The position numbers and the translations under genes are program-made. From a virus, in IMG/VR virus record IMGVR_UViG_3300009130_000106, positions 1 to 28,112 of that record: a stretch of DNA of 28,112 nt; one strand, written 5' to 3'. How positions within the stretch are numbered: position 1 is the first letter of the stretch; every line of letters begins with the position of its first letter. Below the pieces are notes generated by a model. That model searched no databases. It worked only from the letters and a program-made list of their open reading frames with translations, and was not told the origin of the DNA. Below, piece after piece: positions 13 to 24,622 of this stretch.

Positions 13-32
13 AAAATTATGTCTGGAAGTTA

Positions 33-1538
33 TCATAACTGCACTTTCTTAATTTTATATGGGAACTGCTGTTCATCGTATATTTTCTGTCTTGCTTTAC
101 CATGAAAATAAAGCATGTTCTTTTTATTAGAACTTAGAACATCTACATAATCAAATACGTGTAATATAGACTTGTCTTTATGTTGTCTTAAACCTCTACC
201 AAGACTTTGTCTGATAATTACATCACTCTTAAAACTTTCTACTAAGTGAATGTAATGTATGTTTTTGATACTTACACCTGTAGATAATGTACCATAAGAA
301 GCAACAAGTATTTTATTATTGCCTTCTTCCATGAGATGCTTAATCTCATTTCTACGATCTTTATCTACGCTACCTGAAATGTAATATACTTCTTTATCTG
401 TATGTTCCTTAATATATTTATAAAGCTCTTGCCCATATGAAGTTCTATGAAAGAGTATCAATTGGTTATTATTCAACTGATTAGCAAGCTTAGCAATAAG
501 AGCAACACGTTTTGAATGCTTAATGATAAAGTCCTGCTCCATTTTAAGTAGCTTTCCATTATCACCAATACCCATTATTACATTGTCGAATGATTCTAGT
601 GTACTTGCATCGTAATTAAGTTCTAGAGTAGTAATTGCTAATTTAGAAATGAATCCACGATCTTGTAATGTCTTAGCTTTAATTTCAGTAACTCTTGGTC
701 CTAAATAAGCTTGTAGTGTAAGCCAATCAAGAGTACCTTTCTTGGGTACAGTACCAGTTACACCAAATCTTCTTTTAGCATTATGACATTTACTTAAAAT
801 ATCTTGAATAGATTTTGCTTTTGCTTTATGAGTTTCATCAACAGCAACAGTATCAAAATAAAGTAAAAACTTATCGTTGAAATTTACTAAACTTTGGAAT
901 GTACCAATGAATATATTTTGATCTGTTTTAAAGTCCTTAGATTCTCCACCATGAATTTGTTTGATATTCATGTTAGTTTTATTCTCTGGCTTTAATGTGC
1001 TATTGTACTCTGTAAAATCTTCAAAACCTTGAATTACTAAGTTAATAGTAGGAACAATCATTAAGCATCTTTGAGATAACCCTTTATCTATAAGATATGA
1101 GAATACTAAAAAGATAATTAATGATTTACCTGCAGATGTTGCTAATTCACTTATTGATAACTTATTTCTAAGAATCTTATAAGCAGCTTCAATTTGATAA
1201 TCTCTTGGTTCAAATTTACTACCATCGAATTTATTCTCTACATATTCAGTGAATTCAAATTCATCTATGTCAAAGAATAATTGGTTAAGACCATTAATTT
1301 CTATTTGGTATTTGTATTTCTTAGCTATTTCATAAAGTTCTAGCCAAAGTCCAGAAGGAACGTATTTGTTTTGGTGGAAATATGTAATAATTCCGTCCCA
1401 GCCTCTTTTTACGTTCTGTGGTAAGAAGTTGTAATATTCTAACTTCTTTGTTAGAGACTTCTTTAATTGTCTCTTTTCTTGTGGTGTACTCTCAGCGAGA
1501 GTAAGAATTCTACCATCGTGTGTTAAATCAAATTTCAT
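33..1538 (-). CDS. uvsW: UvsW-type superfamily 2 DNA/RNA-DNA helicase
   Basis: 501 residues, the size of T4 UvsW. Superfamily 2 helicase motifs appear in order: a Q-motif-like segment PRDYQ near residue 111, Walker A ATSAGKS at 133-139, DETH (motif II) at 234-237, TGT (motif III) at 261-263, a motif IV/V region around 360-425 (ILFHR, STGVSIKN), and the arginine-finger motif VI RQSLGRGLRQ at 443-452. The N-terminal ~100 residues match the small substrate-binding domain expected for UvsW. In T4 this enzyme unwinds R-loops and branched recombination intermediates and switches replication from origin-dependent to recombination-dependent. It follows uvsY by 38 bases, and AAGG lies just upstream of the ATG. 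A late-promoter-like box sits 25 bases upstream, matching the late expression of T4 uvsW. Identity is seen from motifs, length and neighbours. Confidence 0.93.
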   Translation of the reverse strand: MKFDLTHDGRILTLAESTPQEKRQLKKSLTKKLEYYNFLPQNVKRGWDGIITYFHQNKYVPSGLWLELYEIAKKYKYQIEINGLNQLFFDIDEFEFTEYVENKFDGSKFEPRDYQIEAAYKILRNKLSISELATSAGKSLIIFLVFSYLIDKGLSQRCLMIVPTINLVIQGFEDFTEYNSTLKPENKTNMNIKQIHGGESKDFKTDQNIFIGTFQSLVNFNDKFLLYFDTVAVDETHKAKAKSIQDILSKCHNAKRRFGVTGTVPKKGTLDWLTLQAYLGPRVTEIKAKTLQDRGFISKLAITTLELNYDASTLESFDNVIMGIGDNGKLLKMEQDFIIKHSKRVALIAKLANQLNNNQLILFHRTSYGQELYKYIKEHTDKEVYYISGSVDKDRRNEIKHLMEEGNNKILVASYGTLSTGVSIKNIHYIHLVESFKSDVIIRQSLGRGLRQHKDKSILHVFDYVDVLSSNKKNMLYFHGKARQKIYDEQQFPYKIKKVQL

Positions 1539-4821: not shown

Positions 4822-4986
4822 ATGTCGCTAGAACAAGGTAAAACGTATGTTATTGAAAGTCCAATCTTTGACTTTGAGTTCACTCACGGTAGAACTTTAA
4901 AAGGGAAGATCTTAAATGACAAAGGTCAGTTTATCTGTAATGTAAGTTCAATTAAAAAACACAAAGCACTAATTTATGAAAAGTAG
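4822..4986 (+). CDS. 54-residue hypothetical protein ahead of guanylate kinase
   Basis: A short rightward gene starting MSLEQGKTYVIESPIFDFEF and ending with TAG at 4984-4986. The protein is mildly basic and its hydrophobic/polar alternation suggests a small beta-rich fold. I do not recognise it. It is likely real because it has the first ATG after 430 ATG-free bases, follows an A-rich ribosome region (AGTAAAACAAT), and overlaps the kinase start by 11 bases (ATGAAAAGTAG), implying coupled translation. It contains one Cys and has no signal or membrane segment. Confidence 0.65.
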   Translation: MSLEQGKTYVIESPIFDFEFTHGRTLKGKILNDKGQFICNVSSIKKHKALIYEK

Positions 4987-5452
4987 AATTATTATTGTAG
5001 GTGCAGGTGGATCTGGGAAAGATCATCTGAAAGAAAGGTTTATCAAGAAAGGTTTTAAACCAAGCGTATCATTTACTACAAGACCACCAAGAGAAGGTGA
5101 AGTAGATGGGCAAGATTACTTATTTGTGTCTCATAGAACATTTGATAAGATGGTAGGAGAAGGAGAATTCTATGAGCATAAAGTATTCAATCGTTGGTGT
5201 TATGGTACTCATGTATCTGATTTTGATTGCGCAGATGTTTTTATTATGACTCCACCTGCAATAGATGAAATGAGTCAAGAACTTAGAGATAGTTCTGTTG
5301 TAATTTTTATAGATGTGGATGAAACTGTAAGAGCTAAAAGATTATCTGCTCGCCGTGATGCTGATGATGTCAAAAGACGTATCGAAGCTGATAGAGAAAT
5401 GTTTGATTGTTGGACGAATTATGACCTTAGAGTCACTAGCCCAGTATTTTAA
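4976..5452 (+). CDS. gmk: Guanylate kinase (GMP/dGMP kinase)
   Basis: 158 residues. A P-loop GAGGSGKD at 9-16 is followed by the guanylate-kinase signature SFTTRPPREGEVDGQDYLF at 32-50, with the nucleotide-binding residues R36, R39 and Y48; E67 and Y76-G77 (CYGTH) match the GMP-contact positions of cellular enzymes. A lid-like arginine cluster (RLSARRDADDVKRR) lies near 122-135. It should convert GMP or dGMP to the diphosphate to feed phage DNA synthesis. It is shorter than cellular guanylate kinases (about 190-210 residues), mainly at the C terminus, but the visible catalytic residues are kept. It is not related to T4 gene 1 dNMP kinase by this signature. It is the last rightward gene, followed by a shared terminator. 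Confidence 0.9.
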   Translation: MKSRIIIVGAGGSGKDHLKERFIKKGFKPSVSFTTRPPREGEVDGQDYLFVSHRTFDKMVGEGEFYEHKVFNRWCYGTHVSDFDCADVFIMTPPAIDEMSQELRDSSVVIFIDVDETVRAKRLSARRDADDVKRRIEADREMFDCWTNYDLRVTSPVF

Positions 5453-5459
5453 ATAAAAG

Positions 5460-5482
5460 AAGGGAAGATCATTTCTTCCCTT
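5460..5482. terminator. Bidirectional terminator between convergent genes
   Basis: A perfect 8-bp stem AAGGGAAG/CTTCCCTT with a 7-base loop lies between the guanylate kinase stop (5452) and the convergent 82-residue gene, whose stop codon is inside the loop. T-rich stretches follow the stem in both directions (CTTTATATTCTTTCT rightward, CTTTTATTT leftward), so it can end both transcripts. Confidence 0.8.
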
Positions 5483-5717
5483 TATATTCTTTCTCCATTT
5501 TTTCTAGTTCAGTTATACTAGCATCTACTGGTGCTAATGCATTCTGTAATTTCTCAGCAAAATTACTATCGCCTTCTTTGTCTGCTTTAACAGCAGCATT
5601 TATAGCATCTATAATTGTAGATGATAATTTTTTCTTAAGATCTTTCAATACAGCCATTTCATCTTTAGCTTCATTAATAGATTCTGAATTTAATTCTTTT
5701 AATGTTTTCATAGTCAT
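5469..5717 (-). CDS. Candidate capsid-targeted internal protein, 82 residues
   Basis: Function unknown. The protein starts MTMKTLKEL; the second Met (5711) gives MKTLKELNSESINE|AKDEM, matching the leader shared by its neighbours, so that start is likely the real one. INE|A fits the T4 prohead protease rule (L/I)-x-E before A/G/S. The remaining ~65 residues are helical and highly charged, with heptad-like hydrophobic spacing (AVLKDLKKKLSSTIIDAINA) and the end EKMEKEYKGKK, like the small basic T4 internal proteins. It is the last gene of the leftward block and its stop lies within the terminator hairpin. Family membership is inferred from the leader only. Confidence 0.6.
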   Translation of the reverse strand: MTMKTLKELNSESINEAKDEMAVLKDLKKKLSSTIIDAINAAVKADKEGDSNFAEKLQNALAPVDASITELEKMEKEYKGKK

Positions 5718-5724
5718 ATTTATT

Positions 5725-6000
5725 TTACCAACCAGTACCTTCTGGTCTAATCCATTCTCTATTGCTAATTAATTGCTTTTCTGTATAAGTGAATGGTTTT
5801 GATTTTTTATCATCTAGATCGTTAAATGTGAATTTATCACCCTTGATATCTATTAATGTGAATGGGCTTGATACACTTCTTACATCACCATCTTCGTCTA
5901 CTGTATGTAATTCGTATTTATCACCTACACGTAGGGTATGACCCATCAAAAATTTACTTTTTGCTTCATTTAAAGCTTTAATTTCATTTAATGATTTCAT
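5725..6000 (-). CDS. Candidate capsid-targeted internal protein, 91 residues
   Basis: Function unknown. The N terminus MKSLNEIKALNE|AKSKF carries the leader common to this cluster, with an LNE|A prohead-protease-like site after residue 12. The following ~75 residues have alternating polar and hydrophobic segments (RVGDKYELHTVDEDGDVRSV, TLIDIKGDKFTFNDL), suggesting a small beta-barrel such as an SH3-like fold, and the end is WIRPEGTGW. The start is the first ATG, one base after the upstream gene. It lies in the middle of the cluster, so co-expression with the other candidate internal proteins is likely. Confidence 0.62.
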   Translation of the reverse strand: MKSLNEIKALNEAKSKFLMGHTLRVGDKYELHTVDEDGDVRSVSSPFTLIDIKGDKFTFNDLDDKKSKPFTYTEKQLISNREWIRPEGTGW

Positions 6001-6001
6001 A

Positions 6002-6487
6002 TTATTTAAAATATTTGTAATAAGGTTCTCCGCCTTTAAAGAAATTTACATCGAAGCATTTTTTCGATTGTAATATTTCATCTATTAGTTTGTCATCTCC
6101 TATAATTCCTGCGTAAGCATACGGAATAGAATCTAAAGGAGTTCTTTCAATATGAGTTTTAGTTAAGCTATCATATATCCACCAATGCTCAACTGGAGTT
6201 AATGACTCAGTAAACATATATCCTGCTACTGGATAATATCTAGTAGGTTCTTCCATTAGATCATTATAATCTGCTTCAGACTTAGCATATTTCCATGCAT
6301 TAGTTTCACAGCTATTCTTATCACCCGCTGGACTATATTTGTACTTATCAACTCCTGGAATAACAAATGCAAAATTAGGTAATCTAGATGCTTTCTTGAG
6401 AAGGTTTTTATTCTTCTTATTGATATCTTGGATTACTTGATTCTTATTTACTTTTGCTTCAGTTAAATATGATGATAAACTTTTCAT
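6002..6487 (-). CDS. Candidate capsid-targeted protein with cysteine-hydrolase-like motif
   Basis: 161 residues. The leader MKSLSSYLTE|AKV aligns without gaps to the T4 capsid-targeting sequence MKTYQEFIAE|AKV, with the cut site at the same place (after residue 10). The body has C60 followed by ETNAWKYAK at the start of a helix, a strand-rich part RYYPVAGYMFTES, then H101 in EHWWIYD with D106 shortly after. This C...(about 40)...H-W...D layout resembles papain-like or transglutaminase-like hydrolases that pair CxxNA at a helix start with H[AFW]W and a following acid. If right, it is an enzyme packaged in the head and delivered with the DNA. It overlaps the upstream gene as TAATG. The leader match is seen; the enzyme class is inference, and a non-catalytic relative is possible. 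Confidence 0.65.
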   Translation of the reverse strand: MKSLSSYLTEAKVNKNQVIQDINKKNKNLLKKASRLPNFAFVIPGVDKYKYSPAGDKNSCETNAWKYAKSEADYNDLMEEPTRYYPVAGYMFTESLTPVEHWWIYDSLTKTHIERTPLDSIPYAYAGIIGDDKLIDEILQSKKCFDVNFFKGGEPYYKYFK

Positions 6488-7011
6488 TAATATTCGTCAG
6501 TCTCATTTTGGATAGATACTTCAATATCTACATTCTTAGGCTTAGCATTTTTGATTTTGCTCATAGCATCTTGAAAGTCAAGATAACCATCACCAGAAAT
6601 ATCAAAATCTTGCTTAAACACTCCCTTATCGTCTGTATATTCATCAGTCATTGTATCTGGAGTTAAACTAAAGTCATTATTAAGAATTCTAACAGCTTTC
6701 TTAACATCATTCTTTTTACCTTTTACTGAGATATATTCGTTAGCATCAACATCATATCCACTAGCTTCATTTACTCCCCAATCATCTGGTAATAAATCAG
6801 TCTTATTTAATTCTCCAGCTCTTTTGATAATCCATTTTTTACTCTTATCATAATCTTTAGCTCTACCTACTGATTGAATAGCATTCTTTAAATCCTCTTC
6901 ATTTTCGATAGGGTAACTTCCATCTGGCATAGCTTTACCAGAATCTGCAAGCTTTTCTCTTTCTTCTTCAGAGAATTCTTTTTCTACTAAGTAATATTTA
7001 AGTGATTTCAT
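6487..7011 (-). CDS. Candidate capsid-targeted protein with MPDGSYPI head-protein domain
   Basis: 174 residues. The leader is MKSLKYYLVE|KEF, with the Glu at position 10 as in its neighbour but Lys after it, so cleavage is less certain. Residues 12-78 hold a recognisable phage domain: EREKLADSGKAMPDGSYPI, then NEEDLKNAIQSVGRAKD, IIKRAGEL and LLPDDW. I have seen this pattern in proteins annotated as phage structural or head-maturation associated, but its biochemical role is not known to me. A second domain (about 90-170) looks like an alpha/beta sandwich with DISGDGYLDF. VNE|A at 80-83 between the domains is a weaker protease-like site. It overlaps the downstream gene by one base (TAATG). Confidence 0.65.
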   Translation of the reverse strand: MKSLKYYLVEKEFSEEEREKLADSGKAMPDGSYPIENEEDLKNAIQSVGRAKDYDKSKKWIIKRAGELNKTDLLPDDWGVNEASGYDVDANEYISVKGKKNDVKKAVRILNNDFSLTPDTMTDEYTDDKGVFKQDFDISGDGYLDFQDAMSKIKNAKPKNVDIEVSIQNETDEY

Positions 7012-7017
7012 AAAAAT

Positions 7018-7521
7018 TTATTTTTTATATTCAGGAGTAATCCCGTATTTATCAAATAGCTTCTGTAAAGCTTTAGTCATTCTACCTCTACTATATTCAG
7101 GGCATTTCTGTTTACCTGCAATAGCTTTATGAAGTTTATTCCAACTACTCTTCATAAGAACAGGAGCTTTAGGCTTCTCAGATGGATGGATAAGCAATTC
7201 ATCTTCTGTATGCTGTCTATTCTCTTCAAGATAATCAGCAAGATTTCTCAAAGCAGATATAAGATCTGTATGCTTTTCAAGTCCTAGTCTTTTAAATGAA
7301 TTAGTTACTTTACCTTCCCATGCATTTGCTTGGAAGTTAATAGCACCTCTTACACAACCTTTCCCAGTTTCATCAGCAACTTCAGCTTTTAACTTATGCT
7401 GATGATCTATACAAAATTGATCTAAATCATAATACTTCTTAAGAATAGGGCAAATACCATCTTGTTCTTGCCACCATTGCTCTCTTAATATTTTTAAATC
7501 TTTACTTTGTAATTGTTTCAT
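7018..7521 (-). CDS. 49: Endonuclease VII-like Holliday-junction resolvase (gp49-like)
   Basis: 167 residues (T4 gp49 has 157). The His-Me core is clear: CIDHQHKL with D39, H40 and H42 matches T4 DHDHEL (D40, H41, H43), and GCVRGAINFQANAWEG aligns to T4 GKVRGLLCNLCNAAEG, keeping the catalytic Asn (N66) and the Glu (E69). The role would be cutting branched DNA before packaging. Oddly, of the four zinc cysteines in T4 (CLIC and CNLC) only C24 remains (CPIL, and NFQA in place of CNLC), so the structural zinc site appears lost. The C-terminal half is helical and includes KLHKAIAGKQKCPEYSRGRM. The start MKQLQSKDLK resembles the neighbouring leaders only superficially and lacks the E|A site. Confidence 0.82.
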   Translation of the reverse strand: MKQLQSKDLKILREQWWQEQDGICPILKKYYDLDQFCIDHQHKLKAEVADETGKGCVRGAINFQANAWEGKVTNSFKRLGLEKHTDLISALRNLADYLEENRQHTEDELLIHPSEKPKAPVLMKSSWNKLHKAIAGKQKCPEYSRGRMTKALQKLFDKYGITPEYKK

Positions 7522-7561
7522 TTAATATATGTTTACTCGTACTCGTCTTCTTTAATATATG
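7521..7561 (+). repeat. 11-base direct repeat flanking a short spacer
   Basis: TTTAATATATG occurs at 7521-7531 and again at 7551-7561, exactly 30 bases apart, in the only gap of the small-gene cluster. The spacer contains a doubled ACTCGT. On the minus strand the copies read CATATATTAAA, and one abuts the endonuclease VII start codon. It may be a remnant of a local duplication. Confidence 0.5.
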
Positions 7562-7593
7562 GCCAAGGATATATAATGAAGTAAACTCTTCAT
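7552..7593 (-). pseudogene. Orphan 13-residue leader, likely remnant of a targeted-protein gene
   Basis: The stop of the 135-residue gene overlaps an ATG as TAATG, as at several junctions here, opening MKSLLHYISLAIY followed by TAA. MKSLLHYI closely matches the leaders MKSLSSYL and MKSLKYYL of nearby genes. In another frame the same DNA ends YPWPYIKEDEYE before a stop; a one-base change in the TATATAT run would join the two. Either a decayed gene or a very small peptide. A hairpin AATGAAG/CTTCATT (7575-7594) overlaps its start. Confidence 0.35.
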
Positions 7594-8000
7594 TACATTT
7601 TACCTTCCTTTTTATAATTCTTGATAGCTTTAGTATACATACGCTTAATCATTTTAAGCATTTCAAAACCATCATCATATTGCCAGTACTGCTCTGAATC
7701 ATCACCTTTTTCTAAGTAATCATTCATATCGAAAGTTTCTTCTTTCTTCTCCCATTTATAACCGTTACCCATTTCTTTGTACTTGATTTTAAGTACATTG
7801 TCTTTGAACTCGATTGGTTCATAAACCATAGGAGCTTCCCAAGTAGATGTAGAATCAATAACCTCTACTGGATCACCATCTTTATCTACTGCAGATGCAA
7901 TAATCTTATTAACATCTTTTACCCACTTATCTACTTTCTTAAGATCAGACTTTGCTGATTCTAAGATTAATGATTCTTTGATTTGTTGTAAATTTTTCAT
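7593..8000 (-). CDS. Candidate capsid-targeted internal protein, 135 residues
   Basis: Function unknown. The leader MKNLQQIKESLILE|SAKSD belongs to the cluster pattern, with ILE|S after residue 14 fitting the prohead protease rule. The body is acidic in the middle and basic at both ends: KKVDKWVKDVNKIIASAV, a Trp/Glu-rich segment (STWEAPMVYEPIEF, YKWEKKEETF), then the C-terminal helix MLKMIKRMYTKAIKNYKKEG. No catalytic motif is seen. The ATG is one base past the stop of the upstream gene. The stop is followed in frame by TGA and then 18 open codons, an oddity noted under the findings. Confidence 0.6.
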   Translation of the reverse strand: MKNLQQIKESLILESAKSDLKKVDKWVKDVNKIIASAVDKDGDPVEVIDSTSTWEAPMVYEPIEFKDNVLKIKYKEMGNGYKWEKKEETFDMNDYLEKGDDSEQYWQYDDGFEMLKMIKRMYTKAIKNYKKEGKM

Positions 8001-8001
8001 A

Positions 8002-8586
8002 TTAATATGCTAATTTAACTTCAAGCTTATTTCTTTTCTTGATAAGCTTTTCGATTTGTTTTTCTATTTTGTTAAGTTCTTTACCGAACTTATTAGCTTC
8101 TTTGTCATTCCAATCATCACCTAATCTACCTGCTTCTTCTTCCATATCTCTGTAAGTTTCAGCTCTTTCAGTATATAGGTCATTTAATTCAGAATGAATA
8201 TCATCCAGATCAAGTTCAAGTTTTTTACGTTGTTTACCGTAAACTCTCTTTGATTTAGCAAGATCATCTGCTTTCTTTTGTTTTTCACGTTGCATTTTAG
8301 AATTTCTTAATGCAATCATTACTGGATCATTATAAGTCATTTCGTTTAAAACGCTTTCTAATAAATCACCATTTTCGTCGAAGAAATCTTCTACTGGTAT
8401 TTTATAATAACCCATGATATCTGCTACTATATCAGCATGATCTGAATTATTCATATCATAATTAGCTTTAACGAAATCCATAACGTCTTTATTAGACGGT
8501 TTTCCACCAATTACTTTCTTTACTTTAGCAATAGAATTATACTTATGCTTTCTTTCTTCGTTTAAATATGAATTAAGGTTTTGCAT
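8002..8586 (-). CDS. Candidate capsid-targeted coiled-coil protein, 194 residues
   Basis: Function unknown. The N terminus MQNLNSYLNE|ERK is the most diverged member of the leader family but keeps the Y-L-x-E spacing (Glu at 10). A helical domain follows (about 20-80), ending LLESVLNE, then the motif MTYNDPVMIALRNSKMQREK. From about residue 95 to the end it is a nearly continuous, highly charged coiled coil (LDDIHSELNDLYTERAETYR, IEKQIEKLIKKRNKLEVKL). Such rod-like charged proteins fit a head-core or internal protein. It sits between the glycine-zipper gene and the 135-residue gene with gaps of only 1-5 bases. Confidence 0.58.
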   Translation of the reverse strand: MQNLNSYLNEERKHKYNSIAKVKKVIGGKPSNKDVMDFVKANYDMNNSDHADIVADIMGYYKIPVEDFFDENGDLLESVLNEMTYNDPVMIALRNSKMQREKQKKADDLAKSKRVYGKQRKKLELDLDDIHSELNDLYTERAETYRDMEEEAGRLGDDWNDKEANKFGKELNKIEKQIEKLIKKRNKLEVKLAY

Positions 8587-8591
8587 GAATA

Positions 8592-9242
8592 TTATTTTTT
8601 TCCACCACCTCCGATAGCAGCACCGATAGCAGTACCTACTAATCTACTTGTTAATACATTATAAAGAGGTGAATTTTCTTTTATTCCTAAAACTCTAGCA
8701 ATAATTTTACCGATAGATTTACCAAATGCTAAACCACCAAGACCACCTAAAACAGAACCGATAACTCCTTCGTTAAGTTCATTTGTTTCTCCCTCGAACC
8801 ATTCTTCAATAGCATTAATCTGCTCTTCAGTAAATTCGATACATTCAACTAAGTGATCGCTTAAAAGTTCTGAAATTTCATTAGCAACGTCTTTAGGAGA
8901 TGTATATAGAAGTTTAGCAATTACTCTTACACTCTTTTGATCTACTTCAAGAGTTTCTTCATCATATCTAACATCTTCTAATTCATCTAATAAAATAGTT
9001 GATTTAGCACCTGATAAGTTATACGAAGATTTAAGAGTCTCCCAAATTTCTTGAAGAACGCTTATAGTATCAACTAATGTAGCCATACCATTTTTAGCTT
9101 CTTCTAATTCTTTATAGACGTCTTTAAACTTTTTAGTACCTACAGGTACATCACCGCTACCTACTTCACCATTAGCTGGCAATGAAACTTCTCCCATGCC
9201 ATTAACATTAGCAACTGTAGCATTTTCTTTTATACTTTTCAT
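8592..9242 (-). CDS. Glycine-zipper protein with a possible internal protease site
   Basis: 216 residues, function unknown. The start MKSIKENATVANVNGMGEV and a GSGDVPVG segment form a low-complexity head. A helical acidic domain follows (about 36-150). Residues 159-216 are glycine-rich and hydrophobic: GVIGSVLGGLGGLAFGKSIG, then RLVGTAIGAAIGGGGKK at the C terminus, with glycines spaced as in glycine zippers that pack or insert in membranes. LNE|G at 156-159, just before that domain, fits the prohead protease rule and could release a 58-residue membrane-active fragment. A late-promoter-like box lies 22 bases upstream, making this the probable first gene of the small-protein operon. Confidence 0.6.
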   Translation of the reverse strand: MKSIKENATVANVNGMGEVSLPANGEVGSGDVPVGTKKFKDVYKELEEAKNGMATLVDTISVLQEIWETLKSSYNLSGAKSTILLDELEDVRYDEETLEVDQKSVRVIAKLLYTSPKDVANEISELLSDHLVECIEFTEEQINAIEEWFEGETNELNEGVIGSVLGGLGGLAFGKSIGKIIARVLGIKENSPLYNVLTSRLVGTAIGAAIGGGGKK

Positions 9243-12950: not shown

Positions 12951-15900
12951 TTATTCATTAAAATATCCATTAGAAGTAGTGTAAGCAGCATCACTATTTT
13001 TAACAATAGTATTTGTATAGATATTTCTATAAAGTTCTGTAAGATCTTCAGTACCTTGAGTGTAAGATGCATCATCATCTGTATAAGCATATGCAGTAAA
13101 TTGATGTGAATGTGCTTCGTTTCTATAAATTGGTATAAAATCATATCCGTCTATGTCAAAAGTACTATTCCAACCAATATATGTAATATTATCAGAACCT
13201 ACATAATTATCAGTAGGCGGTATATGTGCTGTTGTTACTCTACTATAGTATGAAGTAGATAAATTACTTAAATCGTCAAGACTTCTGGATGACCACTGAT
13301 TTATCATTGCACCTGAACTATACCACGATAAATCTATTCCGCCTCTAGAACCATCTGCACCTTCAGTATTTTTATAGCCAGAAACTGGTACTCCTTGGAC
13401 AAAATCAAAATCTGGTATCAGAGTATCATTCATATTTGGATTAGTCATTCCTCTTAGATTAATAGCAAAATAAGTACCTCTAAACACTGGTTCAGCTATA
13501 CGCTGCGACCTAGCATTCATAGCATCTACTACTTCTTCTGGCCAGTACGTACTAGATCTTCTAGTACTATGATCCCAACTCAAATAATATTCATTAGGTC
13601 CGTCAATAGCTCTACTATTACCACCCCATCCAGGGAATCCAGACATATCATTATTACCAGTATCTGGTATTGTTCCACTATCAGGCATCATAACATTATA
13701 ACTACTACCACTTCCACTTTTTATAGTAATTTTATTACCTAGCCAGTGTTGATGATTAGGTAATGAATCTCTTCTTATATATGGGAAACCACCCGCAGTA
13801 AACGCTGAATTGAATACCCAACGATCATTAGGCTTAAAGTAGCCAGTACCTAATGCATCAAGCCTGTCAACAGTAGGTAATTTACGCCCTTGTGCATCTA
13901 ATGATTTTCTTGGATCTACTTGTGTATATCTTAAGTAGTTAGAAGACGGAAACTGCTGTTTAGGGAATCTACCGAAATAATTAGGTAGAATTACTCTAAA
14001 TCTAGATTCTGCTATAGAAGGTGCTAATAAAGATAGACCAGTAGATTGAGCAGATATTTCGCGAGATAAATTATTAATTCTATTAAAAAGTATATTGCGA
14101 TATTGACTATAAGTATTACCAATTTCCCATATATTACCTGCTCCAACTACCCATTTGTATCTAGTAGCAGGATTTGGACTTTCTGGTCCAAACCACTCAT
14201 ACTTATCAAAATGTTCATTTATTGATAGACCTGGTATCTGTTTATCAGAACCGAATGAGAAAACTCCTCCACCAGATCTACTAAAGAACCCACGAGCATA
14301 TATATCTCTTGTATCAGCAAGTACAGCACCACTACAAATATAATACCCAGCCCATTTATCAAATCCTTTACCAGGGAATGCACCAGACCACATATGCCAG
14401 TAACCAGTACTACCACTTCTAAATGCAGAAGAAGAAGTGTTTCTTCTTCTTCTGAATGTTATTTCGTCATATTCTGCTGCTGGTAAAGTTGGATCACCTA
14501 CTCTAATATTAGAATATGATACAAAGTTAAAACTTTCCATAGCATATTCACTTACCATAACAATAGCACCAGTAGGTACACCTACTTTAGTAGGATCTTC
14601 CCATTTAACAGCACCATACCCACCATTAACTGCAACATAGCCTTCTTTTTCGTTAGCAAGGCCATATTCTCTAATACGAACAGTACCATATAAATCAAGA
14701 GAACCAGTAGGTAATATTTTATGACCAAAATCAAGATAACTTTTTAAATTCTCTCTAGAATCTGGATCATTAGGATCAGGATTACCTTCAGCATCAACTT
14801 GTTGATTAAAGAAACCTGGGAATATACCTAATCTAGCCATTGACTTATCTCTTACTGGCTCAGTTTCACTAGCTTGACCATTTGAAATAGGGTCTAGTAT
14901 ATTATAACCTAAATAGTCAAGATCTTCAGATCTTGACGGTATAAGACTATTAGCTGAACCAGTTGCACCTAGTCCAGTAAATACGTTAGGTATTCTAAAG
15001 TTTGTAGAACTATATCCTACAATTGGAGTATCATAACCTTGACCTAAGTAGAATAAATTATCTATAGATTCTAAATTACTAGAAGATACATTTAAACGAG
15101 TTTGACCAAATTTTAATCTTAAATCAGATACGTTATTATAAATCTGAGTACTGTCCTGTATATTTGATCCTTGTCTTCCGTTATATCTACTAGTAGATAT
15201 TAACGAATCAATTCCGTTATCATTAAGAATAGCAATTTCATTAGCTACAGCATTACTAGTAGGAAAGGAATTACGACTAAACACAGTAGTATTTAAAGTA
15301 TCATAAGCTTTACCAATTTCAGGATGCTCATAATTAGATTGTATAGTAGCTCTTCCAGTATTAATGATAACTTCTTTATAAGAAGTACCTTGATTAGGAT
15401 CTTGAGTTGTATTATGATCTAATACAATATTATCACCAGATGCTAAGTTGAAATAAGTATCAACTGCAAGTCTGTTAGACCATTCATTAATATCATAATC
15501 TACTTGAATTGAATTTCTAGAATATCCTGAGCTTAATCTAAATAAATTAGTACCTCTAGATTCTAATTCAATATGACCTGGAGATTTTATATTAAAATCG
15601 AAATTTCTATTCTTAGTTCTTAATTGAGTAAATGAACTATAATCACCAAACTCTGGTACATCTTTATACCAATCAGCATAATCTGAATGAGTTAAGTTAA
15701 GACCAATAGCTAAACCATTATCAAATGTTAAGTCTGGATCAAATCCAACCACATGTTGAGGATCTTTATAGTCATTTTGTGCAACTATAAGCATCGGAAC
15801 ATCTGCTTGTTCCTTTGGCCAGTTATCAAAGAATGGTTTTAGATCTCCATTTGTGTTAAACATAGAAGCATATCTACCTAAAACCATAGAGTTATTACCA

Positions 15901-16436
15901 TGACCAACAACAATGTAATCTAAACCAGAGTTAAGATATGGTGCACCTAATGCATCATCATCAGAGTCATTATTATCATCTATTCCTACTAAGAAACTTG
16001 ATAATTTAAGTTTACTATTAACTGTCTCGTTTGGTATAATATACCCACCAACAGCAGTAGCTTCTGAATGAATTACAGCAATAGAACCATCGCCTGCATT
16101 TCCCTGTGGTCCTTGAGGACCAGTAAGATTCAATCCAGTATCAATCCACCCATTATCATAGTATTGAACTCCTCCGTCATCTTCAAGTCTAAAGTCATTC
16201 TCTCTAAGAACTCCATCAGTAGGTACATTAATTTCTCCTCCACTGCCGTTATCTGCGAACCATTGACTACCTCTAATACCCTGGATACCAGCTGGACCCT
16301 CTGGCCCGTCTGGTCCGGCAGGTCCTTCTGGACCACCGCCACCGGCTATTATCTGGTCCCAGTTAAAATTTGACTTCTCAACTAGTTCCGAAATAGTATC
16401 GCTATCATAAAGCTCTTTAATTATTATAGCTGCCAT
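12951..16436 (-). CDS. Tail fibre with collagen-like repeats and tail-collar-like tip
   Basis: 1161 residues. Near the N terminus, residues 35-56 form eight uninterrupted G-x-x triplets (GPEGPAGPDGPEGPAG, then IQGIRG), with a second short set GPQGPQGNAG at about 106-115; these would form a trimeric collagen stem. The long middle is beta-rich. The C-terminal third looks like a phage tail-collar/gp12-type tip: GAVKWEDPTKVGVPTGAIV, later LPNHQH at 892-897 and AHSHQ at 1108-1112. Paired HxH motifs bind iron along the axis of the T4 short tail fibre tip. It probably binds the host surface. It lies directly after the 1549-residue gene (17-base gap) and starts the run fibre, membrane protein, 778-residue protein. 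Confidence 0.8.
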   Translation of the reverse strand: MAAIIIKELYDSDTISELVEKSNFNWDQIIAGGGGPEGPAGPDGPEGPAGIQGIRGSQWFADNGSGGEINVPTDGVLRENDFRLEDDGGVQYYDNGWIDTGLNLTGPQGPQGNAGDGSIAVIHSEATAVGGYIIPNETVNSKLKLSSFLVGIDDNNDSDDDALGAPYLNSGLDYIVVGHGNNSMVLGRYASMFNTNGDLKPFFDNWPKEQADVPMLIVAQNDYKDPQHVVGFDPDLTFDNGLAIGLNLTHSDYADWYKDVPEFGDYSSFTQLRTKNRNFDFNIKSPGHIELESRGTNLFRLSSGYSRNSIQVDYDINEWSNRLAVDTYFNLASGDNIVLDHNTTQDPNQGTSYKEVIINTGRATIQSNYEHPEIGKAYDTLNTTVFSRNSFPTSNAVANEIAILNDNGIDSLISTSRYNGRQGSNIQDSTQIYNNVSDLRLKFGQTRLNVSSSNLESIDNLFYLGQGYDTPIVGYSSTNFRIPNVFTGLGATGSANSLIPSRSEDLDYLGYNILDPISNGQASETEPVRDKSMARLGIFPGFFNQQVDAEGNPDPNDPDSRENLKSYLDFGHKILPTGSLDLYGTVRIREYGLANEKEGYVAVNGGYGAVKWEDPTKVGVPTGAIVMVSEYAMESFNFVSYSNIRVGDPTLPAAEYDEITFRRRRNTSSSAFRSGSTGYWHMWSGAFPGKGFDKWAGYYICSGAVLADTRDIYARGFFSRSGGGVFSFGSDKQIPGLSINEHFDKYEWFGPESPNPATRYKWVVGAGNIWEIGNTYSQYRNILFNRINNLSREISAQSTGLSLLAPSIAESRFRVILPNYFGRFPKQQFPSSNYLRYTQVDPRKSLDAQGRKLPTVDRLDALGTGYFKPNDRWVFNSAFTAGGFPYIRRDSLPNHQHWLGNKITIKSGSGSSYNVMMPDSGTIPDTGNNDMSGFPGWGGNSRAIDGPNEYYLSWDHSTRRSSTYWPEEVVDAMNARSQRIAEPVFRGTYFAINLRGMTNPNMNDTLIPDFDFVQGVPVSGYKNTEGADGSRGGIDLSWYSSGAMINQWSSRSLDDLSNLSTSYYSRVTTAHIPPTDNYVGSDNITYIGWNSTFDIDGYDFIPIYRNEAHSHQFTAYAYTDDDASYTQGTEDLTELYRNIYTNTIVKNSDAAYTTSNGYFNE

Positions 16437-21172: not shown

Positions 21173-24100
21173 TTATTCAGAAATAGTTGGCGTAATTTGA
21201 CTTACAGTTTTTCCTAGCGAATCAGAAGTATTCTGGAATGTCAATGTAGGAATATCAGAAGAACTGATAGAGTTAGATTTATATCTTGAACTAATTTCAA
21301 CATCGAATGAGAATTTATTATTATCATCGTATGAAATATCAAAACCTAGTAATTTAGAATAATATACTTGAGTAGCATTTGTTACACCAGCAATTCTACC
21401 AGTACCATCTCTTCCTGGTCCAAAGTAATCAGTCATTCTAAATTGATATACTAACTGAATAGCAATAGAATTACTGCCGTCATTTGTAAGTTCTCTTCTA
21501 CTAGAACCATCATTTCCATCAACACGAACTGTTCCATACTCAGTAGGAGCCATATACAAGTAACAGCCACAACTTTTAGGACCAATCAAATATTTATCAT
21601 CATTAATGAATGATATTTTATTAGTGTTATCATCACCATCTCTATAAAATGGTGATTGTCTGTAGTAATTAGCAGTGTTTGTTTCTCTATCAAGAGGTGC
21701 ATATTTCGATACAGTAGTTTCAGTACTTAAGAAAGTAGGTATATTATCTATATCTATACCGCTATTAACTACTGGATGTTCAGCATGTACATATATTCCG
21801 TCATTCGGTATATCTGTACCTAGTACACCTTGGATGTTAGTAGATGTTGTAGCTTCACCTCTCCATACAAAGTAGTTACTATCTGCTGTGTAACTTTCAG
21901 TAGGGATATTATCTAGAGTAGTTGGATTAAAGATATTATAAGACCCTGTAGCTGTACCGTTATCACCTGTTGTAGTATCAGTAATATAGATATCTTTTGT
22001 TCTAGTAATATCCTGATATCTAGTATAAATGAATTGTCCTTGTACTTGACTAGACTGATACGGTAATTGCTTAGCAGTACCACCGCCAATAGAGTTAGTA
22101 ATATCTTCCTGTAGTGGATTACTTAATCCAATAGCAGGTGGTGAATAATCTCCTGTAGTAGTTCTTATGTATCTAGAACCAGGGTTAAGTGAATATAATT
22201 CAATAGCAGTTGCTGCTGAATTCTCAATTCTTAAGAAGTAGTTCTTAGATACAATTACTCCCTTAGGTTCATCTAAGTCACTTACTAAATCTTTATAGTT
22301 ACCAGCAAATAAATTTACAGTCTCATTAGCTTGTACGATTTGTTGGTTACCTAAATCATCTTCAACTTTAACAATAAGAACTCCTAATGTTTTATTTACT
22401 TGAGCTTTTAATATATCAATTTCTGCTTGCATTTTAGCAAGTAAATCGTAAACAGAAATAACATTTCTTTCTTCTGTTAATTGACCAGATGCAATATTGA
22501 ATGCTTGGTGAGCATAGAATGTATCATTTTGAGTAAATTGATCTGCTATATGTTCATCAACTCCTTTAGCAACTAAATCTTCTTGAAGCTTAATAGCAAC
22601 TTGCTCATCAGATGCTTCTTTAGCAATTGATAGAACTGATTTAGATACTCCTAAGCTATCAGGGAAATCAACTCTAATAACATCAGAATATTCAGATTCT
22701 ACTGGATTGCTTGGATAACCTGCTTCAGAAATAGATTTGATACGAATCTCTACTGCTTCATTTTCTCTAATTGGAATATCAAGTTGGTTAATATTAACAG
22801 CATCACCATTTTCATTATCTTGTGGTGCCCAGTAATAAGAACCATTAGTAGGATCATATAATCTTTCTCTTAATGGAGTTTTTGTTGGCACCCATTGGCT
22901 ATAAACTCCTTGAGTTTCTGTTCCGTCATTATTAGTTCTTTTGAACTCGTCAAGAGTATTAGCAGAACCTCCTTTAGTCAAGTATCTGTACTCAACAGCA
23001 AATTGGATAATATCTTGGATACTTCCGTCAATAGCAGTTTGTTCTAGTGGAATATTAAAGAATCCTCTAATTCTGTATTTTCCAGCAGCTGCTGTTGTAG
23101 ATTTATCATTTGCTTTAGTAATGATATCATTTACAGTAGTATTATAAAGAGTTTCAGTTGTTGCTCTTTCTTCAATTAATGATACTAACTTATTTTTATC
23201 TGTTTGTCTTTCAACATCAGTCTTATAAGTTTTAGTAGAAATATCATATCTTAAAGATTTAATATTCTCATCAAGTTGTTGGATTTCACTCTTTAATGAA
23301 TTCTTTTCTCTGTTAAGAGCTTCTATATCTTGATTACTTTGTACTTCTGTTAAGTGTTTATTGATCTGTACAACTTGTAATTCTTCTGGATTCTCAGTTG
23401 CGCTAAATTCAACTCTGTTAGGAACAACTGCTTTACTAGAAGGCGGAATATTTTCGTTTGCTATACTTAATAAGTGAGCACCGAAATCAACTACAGATTC
23501 ATTATAATAAGTATCTAAAGTTTTAATTACTCCATTATCACTTATAGTTAATTCACTAGAATAAAAACCTACTCCTGGACTCCAGTTATTAGAAGGCTGA
23601 TTTGATTCTGGATCAATTGGCTTAATGAATTGTACGATGTATTCGTTAAACCCTACTCCGATTTGTACTTCTGGTATAATTGGAGTAGTATTATAGTAAC
23701 TTAAATTATCTGCTCCTATATTAACAGAGTCATACCCCTCAGCAAGGTTTACACTTACTGTAGTAGTTTCAAAGTCAATGTTAGTGATATAATATCTAGT
23801 ATTCTTATCATTCTTATTAACTAACAAAGAATCTCCGATCTTAAGTTGTTGAGTCTCAAGTAAAGTAGAGTTCTTATCATTATAAGTTAATTTGTCTAAT
23901 TGGAATTTAAGATTCTTCTTAGTAGCAGATACCCCGTCAATTTCTACATCTTCAGTTTGCTCAAATACTCTGATTACTGAAAAGTTTCCATAGTATCTTG
24001 GTTCAACTGGTGGAAGGTCAATAACATCCTCATCTAGAGCATATTCTATGCCGTTCCCTATGATGTTATCAATAAAGTCATTATAATCAATGTTAGACTC

Positions 24101-24622
24101 TCCTTTGTAATTCTCGTTGAAGATAGATAGCTTACCATCTGTGTCTAAATTAAGAATAAATTTCTGTGAAGAAACTTTCTTAGTATAAGGATTGATTTGC
24201 TCTCCAAAGTTATATGCAACATATAAGTAAGGATTTAAGAAAGACTCAAAGAACCAGTTGTTCTTGTTATTAAAAGCAGTAGGTACATCAATGTTAGTTA
24301 AATCATCTGCTGCTTTTTCTAAACTAGATTTTGTTATAGTTCTATAAGTACCATCTGGTAATCTAACAGATGCATCAGAGTCACCTAGACCTGCTAATTG
24401 CTTAATATTTTGATCTTGTCTCTCAAGTTCTTTAAGAACAGAACCCATAGAAGGTAATGACACTGTTCTTATAGTGTCATTAGAAATATCTTCTATTTTA
24501 AGCTCTACTGTATCTGCTTCACTGTTAATTATATCAGATAACTTTGAAAGAATTTCAGAGTTATTTCTTTGTAACTTAATCAGATTATCAACTACAGAAG
24601 ATAATGTGTTTGTGCTTTTCAT
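21173..24622 (-). CDS. Large tail/baseplate protein with coiled coils and FNIII-like region
   Basis: 1149 residues, not a named family. The N terminus is helical (MKSTNTLSSVVDNLIKLQRN). A strand-rich region runs to about 420. A coiled coil spans roughly 425-505 (NREKNSLKSEIQQLDENIKS). Residues about 510-655 look like a fibronectin type III domain: the last strands read VEIRIKSISEAGYPS then YSDVIRVDFP, the usual F/G strand pattern. A short coiled coil near 720-745 (LLAKMQAEIDILKAQVNKTL) precedes a long beta-rich C-terminal part. These features fit a multidomain baseplate or tail-surface protein. Only 9 bases separate it from the upstream 692-residue gene; a terminator closes the pair. The MKS start is not the capsid-targeting leader: no Y-L-x-E site follows. 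Confidence 0.58.
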   Translation of the reverse strand: MKSTNTLSSVVDNLIKLQRNNSEILSKLSDIINSEADTVELKIEDISNDTIRTVSLPSMGSVLKELERQDQNIKQLAGLGDSDASVRLPDGTYRTITKSSLEKAADDLTNIDVPTAFNNKNNWFFESFLNPYLYVAYNFGEQINPYTKKVSSQKFILNLDTDGKLSIFNENYKGESNIDYNDFIDNIIGNGIEYALDEDVIDLPPVEPRYYGNFSVIRVFEQTEDVEIDGVSATKKNLKFQLDKLTYNDKNSTLLETQQLKIGDSLLVNKNDKNTRYYITNIDFETTTVSVNLAEGYDSVNIGADNLSYYNTTPIIPEVQIGVGFNEYIVQFIKPIDPESNQPSNNWSPGVGFYSSELTISDNGVIKTLDTYYNESVVDFGAHLLSIANENIPPSSKAVVPNRVEFSATENPEELQVVQINKHLTEVQSNQDIEALNREKNSLKSEIQQLDENIKSLRYDISTKTYKTDVERQTDKNKLVSLIEERATTETLYNTTVNDIITKANDKSTTAAAGKYRIRGFFNIPLEQTAIDGSIQDIIQFAVEYRYLTKGGSANTLDEFKRTNNDGTETQGVYSQWVPTKTPLRERLYDPTNGSYYWAPQDNENGDAVNINQLDIPIRENEAVEIRIKSISEAGYPSNPVESEYSDVIRVDFPDSLGVSKSVLSIAKEASDEQVAIKLQEDLVAKGVDEHIADQFTQNDTFYAHQAFNIASGQLTEERNVISVYDLLAKMQAEIDILKAQVNKTLGVLIVKVEDDLGNQQIVQANETVNLFAGNYKDLVSDLDEPKGVIVSKNYFLRIENSAATAIELYSLNPGSRYIRTTTGDYSPPAIGLSNPLQEDITNSIGGGTAKQLPYQSSQVQGQFIYTRYQDITRTKDIYITDTTTGDNGTATGSYNIFNPTTLDNIPTESYTADSNYFVWRGEATTSTNIQGVLGTDIPNDGIYVHAEHPVVNSGIDIDNIPTFLSTETTVSKYAPLDRETNTANYYRQSPFYRDGDDNTNKISFINDDKYLIGPKSCGCYLYMAPTEYGTVRVDGNDGSSRRELTNDGSNSIAIQLVYQFRMTDYFGPGRDGTGRIAGVTNATQVYYSKLLGFDISYDDNNKFSFDVEISSRYKSNSISSSDIPTLTFQNTSDSLGKTVSQITPTISE

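What the first reader, a model, noticed from the sequence alone, without database searches (positions are those of the whole stretch)
6002..6487. Possible head-delivered cysteine hydrolase
The protein with the best capsid-targeting match also has C60-x-x-N-A at a predicted helix start, H101-W-W and D106, an arrangement like papain/transglutaminase-type hydrolases. An enzyme of this type injected at time zero could modify or cleave host proteins, for example as an anti-defence effector, like T4 Alt or IPI in concept. The triad is read by eye, so the enzyme class is inference.
Basis: inference. Interest (0 to 1): 0.75.

Follow-up and report, generated by a model that had tools for sequence, protein, structure and literature searches.

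The report
Head-tagged phage cysteine-hydrolase-like protein
A small protein of an uncultured T4-like virus of bacteria carries a T4-style address tag for loading into the virus head and is predicted to fold like enzymes that cut or alter other proteins with a cysteine, so the virus may inject a ready-made enzyme into its host at the first moment of infection.

Summary
Window 6002-6487, minus strand, encodes a 161-aa protein with C60-E-T-N63-A, H101-W-W and D106. No Pfam, PHROG, NCBIfam or PDB sequence match exists, but I recovered an unannotated phage domain family: 11 distinct members, all with C60, N63, H101 and D106. A remote Vibrio-phage group (phrog_6596) also keeps these four. AlphaFold2 (pLDDT 89.6) puts C60 at the start of a helix packed on an antiparallel sheet whose strands carry H101 and the next acid. 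The structural neighbours are almost all papain/transglutaminase-like cysteine hydrolases (NTAQ1, PeiW, SseI, LapG, OspI), but weak (Z at most 4.5). The third triad residue is more likely E/D114 than D106: D106 lies on the same strand as H101. Head delivery is well supported by sequence: MKSLSSYLTE|A fits the T4 capsid-targeting tag, neighbouring genes share it, relatives lie beside the major capsid gene or in genomes with the gp21-type protease, and in related phages the same tag heads a zincin-like and a ParB-like protein. One member is fused to an ART-PolyVal ADP-ribosyltransferase, as in injected polyvalent proteins. Enzyme activity, substrate and anti-defence role remain inference. Distant jumbo-phage relatives have lost the cysteine.

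The parts
6002..6487 (-). gene of the predicted head-delivered cysteine-hydrolase-like protein (161 aa)
   Evidence: orthologue 81% identical; dN/dS well below 1
6458..6487 (-). codons 1-10, MKSLSSYLTE: T4-type capsid-targeting sequence with predicted prohead-protease site LTE|A
   Evidence: L4, Y7, L8, E10 as in T4 IPIII rules; motif kept in the orthologue (MKSLYDYITE|A) while the following linker diverges and has an indel
6308..6310 (-). C60 codon, predicted nucleophile at the N-terminus of helix 60-77
   Evidence: invariant in 11/11 family members and 4/4 phrog_6596 relatives; model
6299..6301 (-). N63 codon, invariant Asn one turn after C60
   Evidence: 15/15
6185..6187 (-). H101 codon, predicted general base on strand 98-106
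   Evidence: 15/15; model
6170..6172 (-).
   Evidence: 15/15; model
6146..6148 (-). E114 codon, acid on the next strand (E or D in all members that reach it); more likely triad acid, as in [DE]-x-T-P / D-P-T
   Evidence: 6 E and 4 D of 10 complete members; D of FDPT in the Vibrio-phage group
6487..7011 (-). neighbour with the same N-terminal tag, MKSLKYYLVE|K
5725..6000 (-). neighbour with tag-like N-terminus MKSLNEIKALNE|A
5469..5717 (-). neighbour with tag-like N-terminus MTMKTLKELNSESINE|A
7018..7521 (-). endonuclease VII-like neighbour; N-terminus MKQLQSKDLKILRE
   Evidence: PF02945 3.4e-6, phrog_423 1.1e-26
7593..8000 (-). neighbour with tag-like N-terminus MKNLQQIKESLILE|S
8002..8586 (-). 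neighbour with tag MQNLNSYLNE|E

Best explanation
The gene encodes a T4-style internal head protein. Its first ten residues (MKSLSSYLTE) load it into the prohead core and are then cut off by a gp21-type protease. The remaining 151 residues are a compact papain/transglutaminase-like Cys-His-acid domain, with C60 as nucleophile, H101 as base, and E114 (less likely D106) as the third residue. It is ejected with the DNA and most likely hydrolyses or deamidates an amide bond in a host protein at the start of infection. Steps shown by sequence or model: the tag motif, the gene context, the fold and the conserved residues. Steps inferred: packaging, cleavage, ejection, catalysis, and the host or defence target.
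For: Fold: models of two family members (pLDDT 89.6/pTM 0.84 and 83.4/0.80) share a Cys-capped helix followed by antiparallel strands carrying His and then the acid. The best VIA-align matches are nearly all clan-CA-like or TGase-like cysteine hydrolases: hNTAQ1 Z 4.5 (related entries align 55..161 on 23..183, compatible with C60 on C28), PeiW/PeiP, SseI (56..160 on 174..299, compatible with C60 on C178), LapG, NAT, SpvD, protein-glutaminase. The second model independently brings SseI, OspI, staphopains, VASH, LapG, a papain-like toxin and PLpro. Conservation: only C60, N63, G89, H101 and D106 are invariant over 15 sequences. Delivery: L4/Y7/L8/E10 match the IPIII rules and the L/I-x-E cleavage motif. 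Seven of 8 genes at 5469-9242 have [LI]xE ending at residues 8-16, against a background of 10.7%. Peptidase S77 occurs in 5 related records. Family genes follow the major capsid gene in L024 and L035. MKxLIKxxLRE tags also head a zincin-like protein in L035 and a ParB-like protein in L038, both near family genes. One member is fused to ART-PolyVal (E 2.5e-11) with a weak GNAT match; that class of protein is predicted to be injected (PMC5512222).
Against: No statistically strong match to any solved structure: Foldseek best E 0.2, VIA Z at most 4.5 and 3.4, below what the tool calls convincing. No Pfam, NCBIfam, PHROG or PADLOC match for the window protein. Fold-level relatives in jumbo phages lack the Cys, and some the His, so the fold can persist without this chemistry. 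The window fragment holds no capsid or protease gene, so the cognate protease of this phage was not seen. The Vibrio-phage relatives (phrog_6596) lack an obvious tag. No virion proteomics or activity data exist.
Confidence: 0.6

Rival explanations
1. A head-delivered protein with the papain/TGase-like fold that works as a binding protein or inhibitor rather than an enzyme, like T4 IPI*, which is injected and binds the GmrSD nuclease. The conserved Cys, His and Asp would be structural or relics.
For: The fold persists in jumbo-phage relatives that have lost Cys (PaBG) or both Cys and His (HRDY3, Lu11). T4 IPI* is a small injected non-enzymatic inhibitor (PMC3012670).
Against: C60, N63, H101 and D106 are the only residues, with G89, that survive across 15 very divergent sequences, which is the pattern of an active site. 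Fusion with ADP-ribosyltransferase and GNAT-like domains favours an enzyme.
Confidence: 0.2
2. The Cys-His hydrolase acts inside the prohead as a maturation or self-processing protease rather than on the host.
For: Family genes lie directly after the major capsid gene in L024 and close after it in L035. Polyvalent-protein peptidases are proposed to act in auto-processing.
Against: A conventional S77 protease is present in 5 related records. The family is sporadic: 9 contigs in the profile scan of viral contigs, plus L035, L038 and L081 from motif scans, none credible in the five T4-like records tested. An essential maturation enzyme would not be so rare.
Confidence: 0.1
3. The N-terminal motif is not a capsid tag; the protein is an ordinary intracellular early or late phage enzyme.
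For: The Vibrio-phage (phrog_6596) and PaBG-group relatives sit among non-structural genes and show no clear tag. The L/I-x-E motif is short.
Against: The tag is shared by neighbouring unrelated genes in the window, in L019 and in L035/L038 and is kept between orthologues while the linker diverges.
Confidence: 0.15

Closest known systems
T4 internal proteins IPI, IPII, IPIII and Alt (capsid-targeting sequence proteins)
   Same: Ten-residue N-terminal tag with hydrophobic residues at 4, 7 and 8 and L/I-x-E cleavage; cluster of small tagged proteins in a T4-like phage.
   Different: The mature domain is a Cys-His-acid hydrolase-like fold, not the IPI fold or the Alt ADP-ribosyltransferase; no virion data.
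Polyvalent proteins of phages and plasmids (Iyer et al. 2017, PMC5512222)
   Same: One family member is fused to ART-PolyVal with a weak GNAT match; zincin-like and ParB-like proteins lie near other members; predicted injection with DNA.
   Different: The window protein is a single domain. The peptidases listed there are zincin, assemblin-like, DD and LonC, not papain/TGase-like.
Human NTAQ1 (N-terminal glutamine amidohydrolase)
   Same: Best VIA-align match (Z 4.5); Cys on a helix start, His and Asp on successive strands.
   Different: About 10% identity, low Z, not recovered with the second model; no evidence for N-terminal Gln substrates.
SseI / OspI / protein-glutaminase / LapG (Cys-His-Asp/Glu deamidases and proteases)
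   Same: Recovered with one or both models; triad layout with the acid on the strand after His (+15 in SseI, +13 here to E114).
   Different: No sequence similarity; low Z; different delivery route.
phrog_6596 (Vibrio Schitoviridae phages, e.g. JA-1 gp72) and the PaBG gp086 group
   Same: Fold-level match (BFVD E 4e-4 and 2e-4, prob 1.00); JA-1 group keeps Cys, Asn, Gly, His and Asp.
   Different: No tag seen; PaBG group has lost the Cys; all uncharacterised.

Membership tests
Papain/transglutaminase-like (clan-CA-like) cysteine hydrolases | Nucleophilic Cys at the N-terminus of a helix, followed by antiparallel strands carrying His and then an acid or Asn | tested here: met
   DSSP of two models: helix 60-77 starting at C60, H101 in strand 98-106, E114 ending strand 111-114; second model helix 48-59 from C48, H79 in 75-84, D92 ending 89-92
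Papain/transglutaminase-like (clan-CA-like) cysteine hydrolases | Clear structural match to a solved member | tested here: inconclusive
   Foldseek PDB no significant hit; VIA-align Z at most 4.5 and 3.4, though nearly all rows belong to this fold
Papain/transglutaminase-like (clan-CA-like) cysteine hydrolases | Third triad residue within reach of His | tested here: inconclusive
   E/D114 conserved as acid and on the next strand; D106 invariant but on the His strand; no coordinates available for distances
Papain/transglutaminase-like (clan-CA-like) cysteine hydrolases | Cys-dependent catalysis | not testable with these tools
   needs biochemistry
Any Pfam or NCBIfam peptidase or transglutaminase family | Profile match above or near the cut-off | tested here: not met
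   no family at E up to 1 and 5 for the window protein
T4-type capsid-targeted internal protein | About 10-residue N-terminal tag, hydrophobic at 4, 7 and 8, ending L/I-x-E at residue 10 | tested here: met
   MKSLSSYLTE|A; orthologue MKSLYDYITE|A
T4-type capsid-targeted internal protein | Cognate gp21-type (S77) protease in the same genome | tested here: inconclusive
   not in the 28-kb window or the 43-kb orthologue fragment; present in 5 of 9 family records
T4-type capsid-targeted internal protein | Present, cleaved, in virions and ejected | not testable with these tools
   needs virion proteomics
Polyvalent protein | Several functionally disparate domains in one polypeptide | tested here: not met
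   the window protein is a single domain; the L006 relative is multidomain (ART-PolyVal plus weak GNAT)
T4 Alt-type ADP-ribosyltransferase | ART domain | tested here: not met
   no ART match in the window protein; no PF18760 in the window
NTAQ1 N-terminal glutamine amidohydrolases | NTAQ1 fold and specificity | tested here: inconclusive
   Z 4.5 with one model, not listed with the other; specificity untestable

The most novel reading that the evidence does not exclude
A previously undescribed family of phage Cys-His-acid enzymes is packaged in T4-like heads through a ten-residue tag and injected at time zero to cleave or deamidate a host protein, part of a modular tagged arsenal (zincin-like, ParB-like, ART, GNAT) in phages that include probable Bacteroidota viruses.
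Probability: 0.45. Interest if true: 0.75.

Novelty: new variant of a known kind. Interest (0 to 1): 0.52.

Why it matters
Only a few head-delivered phage effectors are known in mechanism (T4 Alt, IPI; P1 Dar proteins). This gives an unannotated enzyme-like family with a recognisable tag, a predicted active site and a fusion to an ADP-ribosyltransferase, so time-zero attack on host proteins by a cysteine hydrolase becomes testable. The tag (MK-x-L...L/I-x-E) could also be used to list the full injected arsenal of related phages, many of whose small genes have no annotation.

Tried and rejected
tblastn of the core against phages gave only chance-level hits, including T5 A1 at E 0.2-0.6. The Pleomorphovibrio genome hit (L027) is a chance EHWWIYD in a large 1372-aa protein. 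The 735-kb phage hit (L077, E 0.005) lies in a tail-type protein that looks related to window 21173-24622, not the family. Pattern hits L005, L009-L011, L013, L014, L016, L017, L040 and L041 are spurious reading frames. 345 Bacteroidota genomes gave no match at 1e-5, while the same profile rings at about 1e-47 or better in all 9 source phage records. hhalign of the family profile with JA-1 and PaBG single sequences was not significant by probability; their relation rests on fold, on phrog_6596 matching both JA-1 and, weakly, L006 and PaBG, and on the shared residues. PDB sequence search: none. Literature searches for a phage head-delivered cysteine hydrolase found none in this library, which does not show absence elsewhere. 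Absent from the structural lists but not excluded: any fold that Foldseek did not rank.

Full report
OBSERVATION. C60-E-T-N63-A, H101-W-W and D106 are exactly as described. An orthologue in another viral contig is 81% identical over the full length, with third-position-biased divergence (0.82/0.89/0.59) and dN/dS about 0.14/1.73, so it is a protein under purifying selection.

SURROUNDINGS. The window is a 28,112-base fragment of an uncultured virus, T4-like by its gp32-type SSB, tail tube, endonuclease VII and UvsW-type helicase. Its UvsW is closest to metagenomic huge phages, with Tenacibaculum phages PTm1/PTm5 the closest cultured ones (35%), so a Bacteroidota host is plausible but not shown. 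The gene is one of about eight small genes at 5469-9242. Seven of these eight carry [LI]xE with the Glu at residues 8-16, against 10.7% for random internal stretches of this window's proteins. This count was made after seeing the cluster. The closest copies of the tag are MKSLSSYLTE, MKSLKYYLVE and MQNLNSYLNE, and in the orthologous contig MKSLYDYITE, MKSLSYYITE, MRNLYTYLTE and MKSLKFYLEE.

THE TAG. In T4, the first 10 residues of IPIII suffice for head targeting; residues 4 and 7 matter for targeting and 8 and 10 for processing; gp21 cuts after L/I-x-E (PMC9026906). MKSLSSYLTE|A fits each point. The putative maturation site of major capsid proteins in family phages looks alike by eye: SLLTE|A in L035, TLLTE|S in L024, LINE|A in L008. 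A gp21-type protease (Peptidase S77) is present in 5 of 9 records that carry the family; the window and its closest relative are fragments without capsid genes. In L024 the family gene lies just downstream of the major capsid gene; in L035 and L008 it is within a few kilobases. In L035 a tag of the form MKQLIKRILRE heads a protein with a zincin-like HELVH motif; in L038 MKHLIKKLLRE heads a ParB-like protein beside the family gene MKSLIKKLLRE. In L019 the family gene (MKDLFNKILLE) is preceded by MQDLFKDLIKNILAE on a DUF5872-like protein, and few of about 176 ORFs in that record begin this way. A tag shared by proteins with unrelated bodies is what a delivery signal predicts.

THE FAMILY. No sequence family matches the window protein. 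DNA-pattern scans and profile searches of viral contigs gave 11 distinct members. One (L006/L012) is the N-terminal domain of a 737-aa protein that continues with ART-PolyVal (E 2.5e-11) and a weak GNAT match. Another (L015) follows a DUF5661 domain, beside a GNAT protein with a HELVHH motif seen by eye. Over the 11 members the invariant residues are N58, C60, E61, N63, P86, V87, G89, F92, H101, W103, Y105 and D106; position 114 is E (6) or D (4) in every member that reaches it. Adding four remote Vibrio-phage proteins (phrog_6596) leaves C60, N63, G89, H101 and D106 invariant. In these four the acid of a FDPT motif lies within one residue of position 114. In the PaBG jumbo-phage group, linked by fold and a weak phrog_6596 match, the Cys is lost, and in HRDY3 and Lu11 the His too.

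STRUCTURE. AlphaFold2 models of the window protein (pLDDT 89.6, pTM 0.84, 11 sequences) and of the L015 domain (83.4, 0.80) agree: a long helix starts at the Cys, a strand follows, then a strand carrying His, a short strand ending at the [D/E] of [D/E]-x-[T/S]-P, and a last strand. Foldseek finds no significant solved structure. VIA-align's second look lists mostly cysteine hydrolases of the papain/TGase type: hNTAQ1 (Z 4.5, 3.9 A over 100 residues), PeiW, PeiP, SseI, a CdiA-CT toxin, LapG, NAT, SpvD, protein-glutaminase. With the second model it lists SseI, OspI, staphopain, VASH, LapG and a papain-like toxin. The Z-scores are low and would not convince singly; agreement in kind from two models, with aligned ranges that place C60 at or near C28 of NTAQ1 and C178 of SseI, is the argument. 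NTAQ1 uses C28-H81-D97 and SseI C178-H216-D231; members of this superfamily close to SseI use Cys-His-Asp/Glu with the Cys at the end of a helix (PMC3498931).

TRIAD. E/D114 is on the neighbouring strand, 13 residues after His (15 in SseI, 16 in NTAQ1). I favour C60-H101-E114 at about 3:1 over D106. D106 may stabilise the hairpin or bind substrate.

MECHANISM. Most likely the protein enters the prohead core through its tag, loses residues 1-10 to a gp21-type protease, is ejected with the DNA, and attacks an amide in a host protein by Cys-His chemistry (proteolysis or Gln deamidation; the data do not separate these). Fusion of a relative to ART-PolyVal supports an effector role, because such proteins are predicted to be injected to modify host proteins (PMC5512222). 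An anti-defence role is possible but nothing here points to a specific defence.

KNOWN OR NEW. Head delivery by a capsid-targeting sequence and polyvalent effectors are known kinds. The 2017 catalogue lists four peptidase superfamilies for polyvalent proteins, none papain/TGase-like. This domain family is absent from Pfam, NCBIfam and PADLOC, and touches PHROGs only through weak hits of a relative to phrog_6596. I therefore rate it a new variant of a known kind.

Noticed in passing
L006:895-3108 (IMGVR_UViG_3300025438_000007): 737-aa protein with the Cys-His domain, ART-PolyVal (YHG...GFYFTD) and a weak GNAT match; neighbouring genes include a PhageMetallopep protein and, by eye, a kinase-like protein.
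   Followed up: partly
L035:5054-5794 and L038:9941-10501: Tags of the form MK-x-L-I-K-x-x-L-R-E head a zincin-like (HELVH) and a ParB-like protein near family genes: a candidate list of head-delivered proteins.
   Followed up: partly
L061, L062, L063 and NC_022096 58854-59324: In jumbo phages PaBG, NCTB, HRDY3 and Lu11 a fold-level relative lacking the Cys sits next to thymidylate kinase and, in PaBG, HRDY3 and Lu11, close to a topoisomerase I gene: a conserved but probably non-catalytic version.
   Followed up: partly
L024:664-2529 and L008:12215-14035: The S77 prohead protease ORF (623 aa, matched in two separated pieces) and a portal-like ORF appear to be interrupted by inteins.
   Followed up: no
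window 7018-7521: Endonuclease VII-like protein inside the tagged-gene cluster with a tag-like N-terminus (MKQLQSKDLKILRE); whether it is also head-delivered is open.
   Followed up: no
window 12951-16436: 1161-aa structural protein with a short collagen-like Gly-x-x stretch near its N-terminus.
   Followed up: no
window 4976-5452: Guanylate-kinase-like gene on the plus strand, opposite to all neighbours and conserved in the orthologous contig.
   Followed up: no
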